Source: Faecalimicrobium dakarense (GTDB taxonomy: Bacteria > Bacillota > Clostridia > Peptostreptococcales > Peptostreptococcaceae). From it: DNA of 47,024 nucleotides. Under the pieces are notes generated by a model that ran no database searches, was not told the DNA's origin, and worked only from the letters and a program-made list of their open reading frames with translations. The position numbers were made by a program, and so were the translations under genes. Location of the stretch: the NCBI RefSeq assembly GCF_000499525.1, contig NZ_HG529318.1, positions 1-47,024 on the forward strand, read 5' to 3'. This document shows, in pieces, positions 19,134 through 24,588 of this stretch. Numbering within the stretch: position 1 is the first letter of the stretch; every line of letters begins with the position of its first letter.

Positions 19134-19159
19134 ATTATAATTATACACCATAAACAGTT

Positions 19160-19520
19160 TTCACTGTACCTCACAATAATTTCATATATATTCAGTCACT
19201 AGGGAGATAAGTCTGAGCTGTTGGGAGCGACCCTAGGCTTCTTACCCCAGTACAAAGTACGATATTCCTACATGAGAATGGTTACTCATAAATTTCATCT
19301 AACTTTCAGAAATATAATCTATATTCTCTCTATCTTGTCCTAAGGCTACTTTAACATAGTTCTTGTGTTACACACAGATCTCTCTGCTTCAAGACAAATG
19401 GCTTTGTTTGGTATTTCCAATGTCATATAAGGTACCACGCTTATACCCCGTTGGATTATTCCTCACTGAGTCGTCTATTGCAGCCACCACAAGGCTATTA
19501 CCTTTATATGCAAGTATGTT
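19160..19520 (-). other. GC-richer structured remnant, possibly an IS605-type tnpB 3' end
   Basis: This 360-base stretch has visibly more G+C than its neighbours and no full gene. On the minus strand one frame runs from the AraC stop: GNSLVVAAIDDSVRNNPTGY, then KRGTLYDIGNTKQSHLS-stop. Further along, GGGGTAAGAAGCC precedes a stem CCTAGGG / CTCCCTAG (19196-19242), recalling the right-end hairpin of IS200/IS605 tnpB elements and their omega RNA. No RuvC motif or zinc finger is left. An unrelated structured RNA is the alternative. Confidence 0.35.
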
Positions 19521-20423
19521 TTAATCAGATATTGATTGTTTTTTCTTTCGATAAACAAAAGGTGAAACTCCAGTCTGTAACTTAAACTTTTCAATATAAT
19601 AGCTAGCACTTCCAAATCCACATTGGTAAGCTATATCAGTAATAGATTCATTTGTTGTAATTAATAAATTTTCACTAACGATTAATCTATAATTAGTAAT
19701 ATATTCAAAAATAGAACAATTCATATGTTTTTTAAATTCTCTACAACATGCACTTTTAGATAAATTAACTTGGCTAGATATATCTTTTAAGTTGATCTTT
19801 TCCATATAATGATTATGTATATAATTAATAATTTTTTTTAATCTAGAAGTATCATTAATATTTTTATCGTCATGGTATAATATAAGGCAATTTTTTATTA
19901 AACTATTCCATATATTCAAAATTGATATAAGTATTTGTAATTCAAACCCAGAATTTTTCTTTGTATACTCTTTATGAATCTCTAGCAAATCTTTTAAAAT
20001 ATCAGATTTCCACTTAGTATCACTTTTTAAGATACAATACTTAACCATTGAGTTGCCTACATATGGTCGTACATATTTTATATTTATTATACTTCCTGTA
20101 AAACCATAAATTAAATTTGGATGAAAATCAAAACAAATAAAAGAACTATCAATGTCTTTATAGTTCTTTGCACTATGTAGCTGTTGCGAGTTAATAAATA
20201 ACCCCTTTCCCTCAGGTAAAATTACTGTATCTCCTTCAATATTAAAGCTCACAGTTCCTTTTGTAACAATACAAAATTGAAGTTCCTCATGCCAATGCCA
20301 ATCAATAAAACCCAATACATTTTTGTTAATTTGAGTTGAATATATAGCAAGTGGAAACTCTAAAGATCCATGTTTAGTTATTTCTTTTTGGTTTTCATCA
20401 ATAATTATATTGTGAATTTGCAT
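19521..20423 (-). CDS. AraC-family regulator with N-terminal cupin
   Basis: 300 residues. N-terminal AraC-binding cupin: WHWHEELQFCIVTKGTVSFN and ILPEGKGLFINSQQLHS. The C-terminal pair of HTH motifs: INLKDISSQVNLSKSACCRE with FKKHMNCSIFEYI, then TNESITDIAYQCGFGSASYY with FKLQTGVSPFVYRKKK, the AraC signature. Divergent from the EamA transporter gene with about 150 bases between; it probably activates or represses that gene in response to a small ligand. ATG with AAAGGAG. Confidence 0.93.
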   Translation of the reverse strand: MQIHNIIIDENQKEITKHGSLEFPLAIYSTQINKNVLGFIDWHWHEELQFCIVTKGTVSFNIEGDTVILPEGKGLFINSQQLHSAKNYKDIDSSFICFDFHPNLIYGFTGSIINIKYVRPYVGNSMVKYCILKSDTKWKSDILKDLLEIHKEYTKKNSGFELQILISILNIWNSLIKNCLILYHDDKNINDTSRLKKIINYIHNHYMEKINLKDISSQVNLSKSACCREFKKHMNCSIFEYITNYRLIVSENLLITTNESITDIAYQCGFGSASYYIEKFKLQTGVSPFVYRKKKQSISD

Positions 20424-22247: not shown

Positions 22248-22761
22248 ATGAAAAACTATATTAATACTAACATTCCTAATTTCAAAATTAGATTTGCAAC
22301 AAAAGAAGATAACAAATTAATACTTACATTTATTAAAGAATTAGCAGATTATGAAAATCTATTAAGTGAAGTAGTTGCAACAGAAGAAATATTATATGAA
22401 TCTTTATTTGTTAAAAAACAGGCTGAAGTAATAATAGGTGAATATAATAATGAACCAGTTGGATTTGCATTATTCTTCCATAACTTCTCTACTTTCTTAG
22501 GTAAAGCTAATTTATACTTAGAAGATTTATATGTAAGACCGAGCATGAGAGGTATTGGAGCTGGAAAGGCATTACTTTCAGCTTTAGGAAAAATAGCTAT
22601 AGATAGAGGCTGTGGTAGATTAGATTGGTGGTGTCTTGATTGGAATAAATCTTCTATAGAATTCTATAAAAAAAATGGGAGCAATTCCTATGGATGAATG
22701 GACTGTTTATAGAGTCGAGAACCAAGCTCTTATCGATTTAGCCAATGGTCTAAATGAGTAA
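22248..22761 (+). pseudogene. GNAT N-acetyltransferase, frameshifted near the C-terminus
   Basis: The first frame (22248-22697) encodes a diamine-type GNAT: FKIRFATKEDNKLILTFIKE, ADYENLLSEVVATEE, LYLEDLYVRPSMRGIGAGKA (motif A), LDWWCLDWNKSSIEFYKK. After an eight-A run (22668-22675) it ends abnormally. Dropping one A gives FYKKMGAIPMDEWTVYRVEN and a normal stop at 22759-22761, the typical spermine/spermidine acetyltransferase-like ending (MDEWTVYR). Only the last about 28 residues are lost, so partial function or slippage rescue is possible. Flanked by copies of the neighbouring operon's leader. Ribosome site AAAAGGAG. Confidence 0.88.
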
Positions 22762-22914: not shown

Positions 22915-22943
22915 TAATATAAACTTGTAAATTATAATTAGTT

Positions 22944-23058
22944 TTCTAGGGTTCCGTAGTTTTTAACTAGCTGGTCCGAGAGAAAACACACAGTTAACTG
23001 TGGACACGGAAGGAAAAAAGCCTGGGAGATATTTTATAATACTTCCAAGGCTTTTTTG
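22944..23058 (+). promoter_or_regulatory. ykkC-family riboswitch (guanidine-I-like) with terminator
   Basis: Diagnostic ykkC stretches in order: CTAGGGTTCCG (22946-22956), CTGGTCCGAGAGAAAACACA (22971-22990), GGACACGGAAGG, AAAAGCCTGGGAGA. The expression platform is a terminator: AAAAAAGCC (from 23013) pairs with GGCTTTTTT (ending 23058). The start codon of the B3/4 gene is 30 bases on. ykkC class 1 senses guanidine; sequence subclasses sense ppGpp, PRPP or nucleotides. The downstream genes are not typical guanidine exporters or carboxylases, so the ligand is open. Confidence 0.88.
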
Positions 23059-23087
23059 TATTTAAATTATTTTAGGAGGGTGTTTAA

Positions 23088-23795
23088 ATGAAAAAATTTA
23101 TTACTGAAGATGAATTCTGGAATCTATTTCCAAATGCAAAAATTGGTGTTATTACTTGCCACGATATAGATAACTCTATAAAAGATAAAGACAAATATAA
23201 AAATATGATTTCTGAATCAGAAAAAGAAGTTTCAAAACACTTACGAAATGAGGAGTTTAGTAGTAATGAAGTAATAAAAGTATGGAGAGATGCTTTTAAA
23301 AAGTTTAAAACAAAAAAAGGTGCAAGGTCATCAATTGAGGCTTTATTAAAACGTGTTTCTACTGGAAAAAATTTAGGAACTATTAACCCTTTAGTAGACA
23401 TTTATAACTCTATTTCACTAAAATACGCTCTACCATGTGGTGGTGAGGATATAGATACATTTGTAGGAGATATAAGATTAACTAAGGCTATAGGGGATGA
23501 AAATTTTGTTACATTAGGAACTGATAAAAATGAACCACCATATGAAGGTGAAATAGTATATAAAGATGATGAAGGAGCAATCTGTAGATGCTTTAATTGG
23601 CGTGAATCAGTAAGAACTATGTTAACTGAAAACACAAAGAATGCTTTTTTATGTATTGAATTAGTAGATGAAAAAAGAGTGAAAGAATTTGAGAATGCTT
23701 TAAACGATTTATCTAAATTAGTTAAAGATAATTTAGGTGGAACATGTAGTATATCTATTCTTGATATTAATAATAAAGAGGCAGTTATAAATTAA
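23088..23795 (+). CDS. B3/4 domain protein (PheRS beta-like tRNA-binding domain)
   Basis: 235 residues. EFWNLFPNAKIGVITCHDID opens the B3/4 fold, with VWRDAFKKFKTKKGARSSIE, NLGTINPLVDIYNSISLKYA, LPCGGEDIDTFVGDIRLTKA and NEPPYEGEIVYKDDEGAICR following. In PheRS these domains edit mischarged tRNA; free-standing versions are proposed trans-editing or amino-acid-binding proteins. GGAGGGTG ribosome site. First gene of an operon behind a ykkC riboswitch, with the radical SAM gene 19 bases after. A fragment of its 5' end lies at 22155-22221. Confidence 0.88.
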   Translation: MKKFITEDEFWNLFPNAKIGVITCHDIDNSIKDKDKYKNMISESEKEVSKHLRNEEFSSNEVIKVWRDAFKKFKTKKGARSSIEALLKRVSTGKNLGTINPLVDIYNSISLKYALPCGGEDIDTFVGDIRLTKAIGDENFVTLGTDKNEPPYEGEIVYKDDEGAICRCFNWRESVRTMLTENTKNAFLCIELVDEKRVKEFENALNDLSKLVKDNLGGTCSISILDINNKEAVIN

Positions 23796-23814
23796 TTTTA
23801 AATGGGGGGAAATA

Positions 23815-24504
23815 ATGAGTAATTTTAGTTGTAAAAACATTTATATTGAAGATGGGAAAAAAATATTAGAAATTAATATACTTCCTGAAAAACACTGTAA
23901 CTTTGACTGTATTTTTTGCCCTATAGGAAGGTCAAAAAATAAAATAGATACACAAAAGTCATTTGATGAAATAGATGATTCATTAGTTGAATTAGAAAAA
24001 AAGATAGAAGATACAAAGCCAGAGTTAATCTTTATTAATTCAAAAGGAGAGGCTTTAGTACATGATAAAATTGAAGAGATCATAGATTTTATAAAATCTA
24101 AAGGGTTATCTGTAAGACTACTTTCTAATGGATACGTATTATCTAAAGATGATTACATAAAAATTGCTAATAAATGCGATGAAGTTATTGGCGAAATAAA
24201 AGTAATTACAGAGGAAGATTTCCAAAAAGTTCAACGACCAATTGAAGGTTATACTCTAAAAGAATATATTTCAAACATGGTTTACTTTAATAAACAATAT
24301 AAAGGTAAATTTATATTTGAAATAACTATTGTTAAAGGATATAACGATGATAATAAATCAGTTGAAAAGATAAAAGATGTTATTAAAGAAATATCTCCTG
24401 ATAAGGTAATTGTTGTAAGAATGGATGATGAAATCTTTAAGAAAAAGCTTGGAATAAGTGATGAAAGATTTGAAGAAATTTCAAAGGAATTACTAAATAT
24501 ATAA
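23815..24504 (+). CDS. Radical SAM protein
   Basis: 229 residues. CNFDCIFCP is the CxxxCxxC 4Fe-4S motif; INSKGEALVHDKIEEII is the GGE-like SAM-binding strand, and SVRLLSNGYVLSKDDY a later strand. The short barrel without extra Cys clusters resembles the MoaA/wyosine-like small class (COG0731). Second gene of the riboswitch operon. Substrate unknown; co-expression with a tRNA-editing-like domain suggests a tRNA or amino-acid-related role, which is inference. GGGGGGA ribosome site. Confidence 0.88.
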   Translation: MSNFSCKNIYIEDGKKILEINILPEKHCNFDCIFCPIGRSKNKIDTQKSFDEIDDSLVELEKKIEDTKPELIFINSKGEALVHDKIEEIIDFIKSKGLSVRLLSNGYVLSKDDYIKIANKCDEVIGEIKVITEEDFQKVQRPIEGYTLKEYISNMVYFNKQYKGKFIFEITIVKGYNDDNKSVEKIKDVIKEISPDKVIVVRMDDEIFKKKLGISDERFEEISKELLNI

Positions 24505-24588
24505 TACGTATTTACATAAAATTAATGCCCTTCCAATCCATTTATTTGGATTGTAAGGGCTTTTTACTTAATATATCTTAATCAATTC
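24505..24588 (+). repeat. Array repeat R8 (flipped apex)
   Basis: TTTACATAAAATTAATGCCC, hairpin with AATCCATTTATTTGGATT apex (24524-24565), then CTTTTTACTTAATATATCTT. Left box weak, right box diverged. Serves as terminator for the radical SAM operon. Confidence 0.8.

What the first reader, a model, noticed from the sequence alone, without database searches (positions are those of the whole stretch)
22944..24504. ykkC riboswitch controlling a B3/4-domain protein and a radical SAM enzyme
The aptamer has the ykkC core and a clear terminator, yet the genes are not guanidine exporters, carboxylases or SugE types. Either the two proteins act in guanidine or guanidino-compound biology, or this is a ykkC subclass with another ligand (nucleotide type). 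Linking a PheRS-like editing domain and a radical SAM enzyme to this signal would be new functional information.
Basis: partly seen in the sequence, partly recalled or inferred. Interest (0 to 1): 0.62.

Follow-up and report, generated by a model that had tools for sequence, protein, structure and literature searches.

The report
Guanidine switch on canavanine-defence gene pair
A guanidine-sensing RNA switch in an anaerobic bacterium controls a known repair enzyme against the plant toxin canavanine together with an uncharacterised radical enzyme, and relatives of that radical enzyme are mostly tied to guanidine switches too, which points to an unknown step in how anaerobes handle canavanine or guanidine.

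Summary
Window 22935-23030 (+) is a guanidine-I (ykkC subtype 1) riboswitch: Rfam RF00442, 86.2 bits against a cut-off of 63. A terminator hairpin overlaps the aptamer's 3' end. Two genes follow, then an operon terminator. Another ligand is not supported: the aptamer has the guanidine-type adenosine.

Half of the proposed novelty is in print. The B3/4 protein belongs to CtdA, canavanyl-tRNA(Arg) deacylase (PDB 9f7e, E 3.4e-28), whose control by guanidine riboswitches was published in 2023 (PMC10018355).

The radical SAM partner is the real lead. Of 80 loci encoding it (best 80 of 124), 59 lie behind guanidine-I and 8 behind an RNA that matches guanidine-IV in structure and gene set; 13 have neither. 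CtdA is missing from 35 of 80 loci, and 16 of 25 such genomes searched have no CtdA match at E<=1e-5. Other neighbours are guanidine exporters and, in three loci each, a canavanine-gamma-lyase homologue or a PaiA-like acetyltransferase. I infer an oxygen-sensitive step in canavanine or guanidino-compound detoxification, possibly cleavage of canavanine to guanidine. That reaction is untested.

The parts
22935..23030 (+). guanidine-I riboswitch aptamer (RF00442, ykkC subtype 1)
   Evidence: cmscan 86.2 bits, full length; core reads CUAGGGUUCCG / CUGGUCCGAGAG / ACACGGA / GCCUGGGAG
23014..23057 (+). intrinsic terminator whose 5' arm begins with the 3' end of the aptamer; expression platform of an ON switch (inferred)
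   Evidence: fold -19.1 kcal/mol, z -5.6, then six T; 58 of 60 aptamers examined (window plus 59 loci) have such an overlapping hairpin by my script, L093 and L117 not
23088..23795 (+). CtdA-family canavanyl-tRNA(Arg) deacylase (B3/4 domain), 235 aa; AGGAGG ribosome site just upstream (by eye)
   Evidence: Pfam B3_4 104.4 bits; PDB 9f7e CtdA E 3.4e-28; 38% over 146 aa to the B3/4 protein of a Rhizobium operon
23815..24504 (+). compact radical SAM protein, 229 aa, one CX3CX2C cluster motif (C28, C32, C35), no auxiliary domain; starts 19 bases after CtdA ends
   Evidence: Pfam Radical_SAM 46.6 bits; cysteines invariant in 82 rows; AlphaFold2 model pLDDT 92.8, nearest folds PFL activase Z 18.4 and TYW1 Z 17.9
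24527..24560 (.). operon terminator between the radical SAM gene and a convergent gene
   Evidence: fold -20.7 kcal/mol, z -6.8, T run

Best explanation
A guanidine-I ON switch controls a two-gene canavanine-defence operon. When guanidine (or hydroxyguanidine) builds up, the aptamer closes, its 3' end is withheld from the terminator, and both genes are transcribed (class and platform shown by sequence; switching inferred from the class). CtdA hydrolyses canavanyl-tRNA(Arg), so the arginine mimic canavanine stays out of proteins (membership shown by sequence; activity known for homologues). The radical SAM enzyme is a dedicated part of the same response in anaerobes (shown by association). Its reaction is inferred: it most likely acts on canavanine or a guanidino compound derived from it. 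My likelihoods: guanidine-I class 0.98; CtdA function 0.93; radical SAM in the guanidine/canavanine response 0.9; acting directly on canavanine or an N-oxygenated guanidino product 0.4.
For: Riboswitch. CtdA; PMC10018355 reports that a guanidine-I-associated Clostridium homologue keeps canavanyl-tRNA(Arg) from building up, and that a Pseudomonas guanidine-I riboswitch responds to guanidine and hydroxyguanidine. Radical SAM: 67 of 80 loci behind a guanidine-I (59) or guanidine-IV-like (8) RNA; in 10 of 80 it is the only gene of the labelled set behind guanidine-I. The guanidine-IV-like label needs 6 changes on the tree, at least 3 forced by well-supported branches, so control by guanidine was kept while the riboswitch class changed. 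Not a mere CtdA accessory: 35 of 80 loci lack CtdA, and 16 of 25 such genomes searched have no CtdA match at E<=1e-5, among them Pelosinus fermentans JBW45, which has two copies, L047 and L065. Partners: Gdx/SMR (cluster in 25 of 80 loci), MATE (8), a half-size EamA transporter (in front of CtdA in 5); in 3 loci (L087 partial, L096, L104) a PLP enzyme 50-54% identical to the one in a Rhizobium operon of B3/4, ABC transporter, PLP enzyme and SMR; in 3 loci a GNAT, whose L080 copy matches PDB 8osp at E 3e-37, though PaiA 1tiq scores higher. My glycyl-radical pattern gave one match in 854 neighbouring ORFs, and that ORF is not such an enzyme by its look.
Against: No biochemistry for this radical SAM family is known to me. 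Thirteen of 80 loci have neither riboswitch, and more distant relatives (L128 46%, L039 41%, L043 38% identical) showed none either. The 80 loci are the best of 124 found through two short peptide patterns, biased to close relatives and not independent (two genomes give two loci each). The PLP enzyme lies on the opposite strand in all three loci, with a LysR gene between in L096 and L104, so it is a neighbour, not an operon partner; at L052 and L099 the similar gene is only 35-37% identical. Enterococcus, the organism reported to cleave canavanine to guanidine (cited in PMC10018355), is not among the 80 loci. The fold (PFL activase, TYW1, NifB and viperin all near) does not point to a substrate.
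Confidence: 0.8

Rival explanations
1. The radical SAM enzyme modifies tRNA(Arg) or another translation component and helps CtdA or the ribosome to reject canavanine.
For: CtdA precedes it, usually by a short gap, in the 45 loci that hold both; weak similarity to tRNA-modifying TYW1 (NCBIfam 36.6 bits, cut-off 317.95; fold Z 17.9).
Against: CtdA is absent from 35 of 80 loci, and from 16 of 25 such genomes searched at E<=1e-5. The protein is a bare 229-residue barrel with no added RNA-binding domain.
Confidence: 0.2
2. It is an activase of a glycyl radical enzyme, or a maturase of another protein, encoded elsewhere in the genome.
For: Nearest fold is pyruvate formate-lyase activase, Z 18.4, rmsd 3.0 over 213 residues; similar size.
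Against: One glycyl-radical pattern match in 854 ORFs of the 80 loci, in a 264-aa ORF that does not look like such an enzyme, though such activases usually sit beside their target (recalled); score 29.2 against the PFLA cut-off 231.75.
Confidence: 0.15
3. It acts on free guanidine or another guanidino compound (methylguanidine, agmatine, homoarginine) unrelated to canavanine.
For: The commonest companions after CtdA are guanidine exporters (Gdx cluster in 25 of 80 loci); it is the only labelled gene behind guanidine-I in 10 loci.
Against: CtdA and, in three loci, the gamma-lyase homologue point to canavanine; guanidine itself has no C-H bond for a radical enzyme to attack (own chemistry).
Confidence: 0.2
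4. The RNA is a ykkC subtype 2 aptamer for ppGpp, PRPP or a nucleotide.
For: Shared ykkC fold; variants differ by few bases (PMC6031431, passages).
Against: The base that separates the subtypes (A in guanidine-I, pyrimidine in subtypes 2a/2b, PMC6031431) reads A here and in the other 59 aptamers examined (56 of 60 by pattern, 4 by eye; that this is the right base is my own mapping); the first genes recognised behind such aptamers are mostly guanidine exporters, CtdA or the radical SAM.
Confidence: 0.02

Closest known systems
Guanidine-I riboswitch with CtdA (canavanyl-tRNA(Arg) deacylase)
   Same: Same riboswitch class, same first gene, same anaerobic setting as the published Clostridium case (PMC10018355, PMC11477304)
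   Different: A radical SAM gene follows in the same operon here; my text searches found no open-access paper that links it with guanidine riboswitches or canavanine
Rhizobium/Pseudomonas canavanine utilisation operon (CtdA, ABC transporter, canavanine-gamma-lyase, SMR)
   Same: CtdA plus guanidine exporter plus a canavanine-handling gene; homologues of its PLP enzyme (50-54%) neighbour the radical SAM gene in three anaerobe loci
   Different: Uses a PLP gamma-lyase; here a radical SAM protein stands in that place. The Rhizobium record does not name the lyase; I take it as such from PMC10018355
Guanidine-IV riboswitch (GGAM-1/mepA)
   Same: Two hairpins, loop-loop pairing GCC/GGC or ACC/GGT, second hairpin a terminator, upstream of MATE, SMR and PnuC-like genes
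   Different: Only in relatives, not in the window; identified from published descriptions, as Rfam 15 reported no such family in these loci
PFL activase, TYW1, NifB, viperin (compact radical SAM folds)
   Same: Same CX3CX2C barrel, Z about 16-18
   Different: 14-20% identity and below the curated cut-off of each of the 25 NCBIfam families shown

Membership tests
Guanidine-I riboswitch (RF00442) | covariance-model score above the curated cut-off over the full aptamer | tested here: met
   86.2 against 63 bits, positions 1-107
Guanidine-I riboswitch (RF00442) | adenosine at the position that separates subtype 1 from subtype 2 | tested here: met
   CCGAG[A]G in the window and A in the 60 aptamers examined (4 of them by eye); criterion from PMC6031431, mapping to this base is mine
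Guanidine-I riboswitch (RF00442) | binds guanidine and turns the genes on | not testable with these tools
   needs in-line probing or a reporter; overlapping terminator is consistent
ykkC subtype 2 (ppGpp, PRPP) | pyrimidine at the discriminating position; purine or amino-acid gene context | tested here: not met
   A at that base; gene context is CtdA and radical SAM
CtdA canavanyl-tRNA(Arg) deacylase | B3/4 stand-alone protein homologous to the solved CtdA | tested here: met
   PDB 9f7e E 3.4e-28; profile E 3.4e-29
CtdA canavanyl-tRNA(Arg) deacylase | control by guanidine riboswitch or place in a canavanine operon | tested here: met
   guanidine-I upstream here and in 37 of 45 loci with the pair; 38% identical to the B3/4 protein of a Rhizobium operon
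CtdA canavanyl-tRNA(Arg) deacylase | specific deacylation of canavanyl-tRNA(Arg) | not testable with these tools
   shown only for homologues (PMC10018355)
Radical SAM superfamily | CX3CX2C motif and the radical SAM barrel | tested here: met
   C28, C32, C35 invariant in 82 rows; model pLDDT 92.8, Z 18.4 to PFL activase
viperin, TYW1, PFL activase, NrdG2 (named radical SAM families) | score above the NCBIfam equivalog cut-off | tested here: not met
   50.4 of 180, 36.6 of 317.95, 29.2 of 231.75, 32.6 of 131.15 bits
Glycyl radical enzyme activase | glycyl radical enzyme encoded nearby | tested here: not met
   own pattern over 854 ORFs (own gene caller) of the 80 loci: one match, L092 1058-1852, not a GRE by its look; the window itself was not scanned this way
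Guanidine-IV riboswitch (relatives only) | two hairpins joined by a pseudoknot, 3' hairpin a terminator, upstream of SugE, MATE or PnuC genes | tested here: met
   at 22 of 25 fetched sites the first gene is MATE (7), SMR (1) or PnuC-like (14, two checked by Pfam, twelve by look); description from PMC7736828 and PMC9788692

The most novel reading that the evidence does not exclude
The radical SAM protein is an anaerobic canavanine-cleaving enzyme. A 5'-deoxyadenosyl radical takes a hydrogen from the carbon next to the side-chain oxygen, the weak N-O bond breaks, and guanidine plus aspartate semialdehyde (reducible to homoserine) result; the atoms balance exactly. Guanidine made this way is the signal the riboswitch reads and the product that Gdx exports. 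It would supply a gene for the old observation of canavanine cleavage to homoserine and guanidine, for which PMC10018355 knew no molecular basis, and would be a radical SAM reaction new to me.
Probability: 0.22. Interest if true: 0.85.

Novelty: new variant of a known kind. Interest (0 to 1): 0.58.

Why it matters
Guanidine riboswitches are common, but where natural guanidine comes from is an open question (PMC12186494, concluding remarks). A radical SAM family tied to two unrelated guanidine riboswitch types, in Clostridia, Pelosinus and Propionispira, Dethiosulfovibrio (Synergistota) and Melainabacteria, and able to stand without CtdA, is a concrete candidate for an unknown anaerobic step that makes or removes guanidino compounds. 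It turns a vague link between canavanine and guanidine into a single gene that can be assayed.

Tried and rejected
Rejected: a nucleotide-binding ykkC variant (discriminating base is A; gene contexts are mostly guanidine or canavanine genes). Rejected: filing the radical SAM protein under viperin, TYW1, PFL activase or NrdG2 (scores far below cut-offs). Rejected: a two-protein machine in which the radical SAM needs CtdA. Within the family one gene can decay while the other stays: L021 keeps the radical SAM with a remnant of CtdA, L019 keeps CtdA with a remnant of the radical SAM, L016 has both cut down into one short fused frame.

Led nowhere: fold comparison did not narrow the substrate. Distant relatives of 310-329 aa (L040-L042) belong to a radical SAM group I could not name and gave no clue. 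The Thermovirga relative (46%) sits beside a TtuA-like thiolation protein; I saw no riboswitch core there by pattern. My first guanidine-IV alignment used shifted coordinates and was replaced. The upstream GNAT (22248-22697) resembles thialysine/diamine acetyltransferases; I did not test whether relatives keep it. L090 and L113 match the guanidine-IV-like model only weakly (19 bits) and were counted as having none. I did not test Enterococcus genomes for the radical SAM gene. On rechecking, two of the PLP genes first taken as gamma-lyase homologues (L052, L099) proved only 35-37% identical and were dropped; L095 is a 57-aa scrap without a match.

Counts: the 80 loci are the best 80 of 124 relatives. 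Of the 59 guanidine-I loci, 58 come and L101; L099 has a guanidine-I site but downstream of the radical SAM gene and is counted as none. The 45 loci with CtdA include 4 with a short copy (L068, L070, L072, L091); L050 has only a scrap of CtdA and counts as without. One search was given 25 of the 35 loci without CtdA; of the nine genomes with a match, five have a close one (E below 1e-100) and four weaker ones (1e-32 to 1e-9). Some of the 25 are draft or metagenome assemblies, so absence there is weak. Seven of the 8 guanidine-IV-like loci helped to build the model; L087 did not.

Full report
What is there. The window holds a full-length guanidine-I aptamer at 22935-23030 (+), 86.2 bits against a gathering score of 63. 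Its last 17 bases begin the 5' arm of a hairpin at 23014-23057, -19.1 kcal/mol, better than all 200 shuffles, followed by six T. This is the usual layout of an ON switch by antitermination: ligand holds the 3' end in the aptamer and the terminator cannot form (inferred from the class). CtdA starts at 23088 behind an AGGAGG site and ends at 23795; the radical SAM gene runs 23815-24504; a strong hairpin with T run ends the operon at 24527-24560.

Ligand. Literature separates guanidine aptamers from the ppGpp and PRPP subtypes by one base, A against pyrimidine (PMC6031431, passages). I map it to the A in CCGAGAG; the 60 aptamers examined (window and 59 relatives) carry A there, 56 by pattern and 4 by eye. 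Rfam at E<=10 showed no other riboswitch family at the site; whether Rfam 15 holds PRPP and ppGpp families I did not check.

B3/4 gene. It matches PDB 9f7e, deposited as CtdA canavanyl tRNA deacylase, at E 3.4e-28 and is 38% identical over 146 residues to the B3/4 protein near the head of a Rhizobium leguminosarum gene row of ABC transporter, PLP enzyme and SMR transporter. Hauth et al. 2023 (PMC10018355, parts 1-4 of 6 read) showed that a Pseudomonas protein of this kind deacylates canavanyl-tRNA(Arg), that a Clostridium perfringens one under a guanidine riboswitch prevents its build-up, and that hydroxyguanidine also triggers a guanidine-I riboswitch. The C. difficile review PMC11477304 (section 21) repeats the link. 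This half of the finding is known.

Radical SAM gene: association. A scan of one genome per species found 124 relatives; the best 80 were fetched. Rfam was run on all 80. Guanidine-I stands upstream on the same strand in 59; in L099 it lies downstream, in front of Gdx, and is not counted. Reading the remaining loci showed a different RNA: a hairpin with loop GCC(G/A)CCGGGT, then a terminator hairpin with loop TAGG(C/T)C, where the G/A and C/T change together as a loop-loop pair in the eight copies aligned. A model of those eight finds it in 56 of 245 genomes of the class; at 25 fetched sites the first gene is MATE in 7, SMR in 1 and PnuC-like in 14 (2 of the 14 checked by Pfam), with 3 others. 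That is the structure and gene set described for guanidine-IV (PMC7736828, passages; PMC9788692, part of one section). It precedes 8 of the 80 loci. So 67 of 80 are behind a guanidine riboswitch; 13 are not. On the tree the guanidine-IV-like label needs 6 changes, at least 3 forced by well-supported branches; many forks are weak, and distant lineages mix, which suggests transfer.

Radical SAM gene: partners. Arrangements behind guanidine-I: CtdA-radical SAM 20, radical SAM as only labelled gene 10, Gdx-radical SAM 9, Gdx-CtdA-radical SAM 9, EamA-CtdA-radical SAM 5, and six single cases. Behind the guanidine-IV-like RNA: with MATE in 6 of 8. CtdA is in 45 of 80 loci. Of 25 genomes searched among the 35 loci without it, 16 have no CtdA match at E<=1e-5, five have a close one elsewhere, four only weaker ones. 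In three loci (L087 partial, L096, L104) a PLP enzyme 50-54% identical to that of the Rhizobium gene row lies nearby on the opposite strand; I take it as canavanine-gamma-lyase on the description of that operon in PMC10018355, as the record does not name it. Similar genes at L052 and L099 are only 35-37% identical. A NimA-like flavoprotein adjoins the radical SAM gene in four loci (L061, L091, L096 and a 56-aa piece in L087; two checked by family search). A GNAT follows in three (L080, L084, L124); the L080 copy matches PDB 8osp, with PaiA 1tiq scoring higher. That 8osp is the Lactobacillus curiae canavanine-selective enzyme of PMC10416765 is my recollection; the paper was seen in the search listing only.

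Own family. Of 41 guanidine-I matches other than the window's, 30 were fetched. They control Gdx (16), MATE (2), a Sap-family membrane protein (1, the window genome's second site), or CtdA and/or the radical SAM, remnants included (11).

Radical SAM protein. 229 residues, one cluster motif invariant in 82 rows, no extra domain, high-confidence model. Nearest folds are PFL activase, TYW1, NifB and viperin with similar Z, and none of the 25 NCBIfam families shown is reached. A glycyl-radical pattern gave one match in 854 neighbouring ORFs, not a convincing one. Size and company favour a small-molecule substrate. Canavanine fits: a radical next to the side-chain oxygen would break the weak N-O bond and give guanidine plus aspartate semialdehyde, with atoms in balance (own chemistry). 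[quoted passage not shown] faecalis, without a known enzyme. This step is a proposal, not a result.

In print? Searches for guanidine riboswitch or canavanine together with radical SAM found no relevant open-access text; the hits were judged by title and abstract, and PMC10853860 by passages, where radical SAM is only mentioned in general. A search for named canavanine-degrading enzymes added nothing. Supplements could not be read, and the 2017 guanidine-I, 2020 guanidine-IV (Salvail) and 2022 gamma-lyase papers are not held, so an earlier listing in a table is possible.

Organism. The nearest named relative of the radical SAM protein is in Romboutsia sedimentorum (91%), so the family is taken as Peptostreptococcaceae (inference).

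Noticed in passing
window 19135-19563 (-): ROOL RNA, 241.3 bits over the full model, overlapping the last 43 bases of an AraC-type regulator ORF (19521-20423, -).
   Followed up: no
window 22248-22760 (+): GNAT acetyltransferase gene just upstream of the riboswitch; its frame stops at 22697 after a run of A, and the next bases in another frame read like a continuing C-terminus, so it may be frameshifted. Closest solved relatives are a probable N-acetyltransferase and thialysine and diamine acetyltransferases.
   Followed up: partly
G000:C93:14185-14286; L132 2339-3064: Second guanidine-I riboswitch of the same genome, in front of a 241-aa Sap-family (PF11139) membrane protein: a candidate guanidine exporter of a new type.
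   Followed up: partly
L056, L080, L081, L082, L095: A half-size EamA transporter (about 145-152 aa) takes the place of Gdx between guanidine-I and CtdA in five loci (L056 and L082 checked by Pfam).
   Followed up: partly
L130 6737-6817 and 7652-7746 (-): Guanidine-I in front of CtdA and, between CtdA and MATE, a guanidine-IV-like RNA: two guanidine switch types in one gene row.
   Followed up: partly
L016 1653-2012; L019 488-673; L021 1345-1473: Decayed copies: CtdA start fused in frame to the radical SAM end (L016), radical SAM remnant behind intact CtdA (L019), CtdA remnant before intact radical SAM (L021).
   Followed up: yes
L090 1708-1825; L113 3824-3896: Weak (19 bits) matches to the guanidine-IV-like model with a different second hairpin, before MATE-CtdA-radical SAM and radical SAM genes; possibly a variant class.
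   Followed up: no
L127 3352-4193: Guanidine-I directly before the radical SAM gene, without CtdA and followed by a VOC-family gene, on a 106-kb plasmid of Paraclostridium sordellii typed as mobilizable.
   Followed up: no
L061 2592-3065; L091 4727-5200; L087 3706-3876; L096 3321-3941: NimA-like PNPOx flavoprotein (a fragment in L087) beside the radical SAM gene; it might reduce hydroxyguanidine to guanidine (speculation).
   Followed up: no
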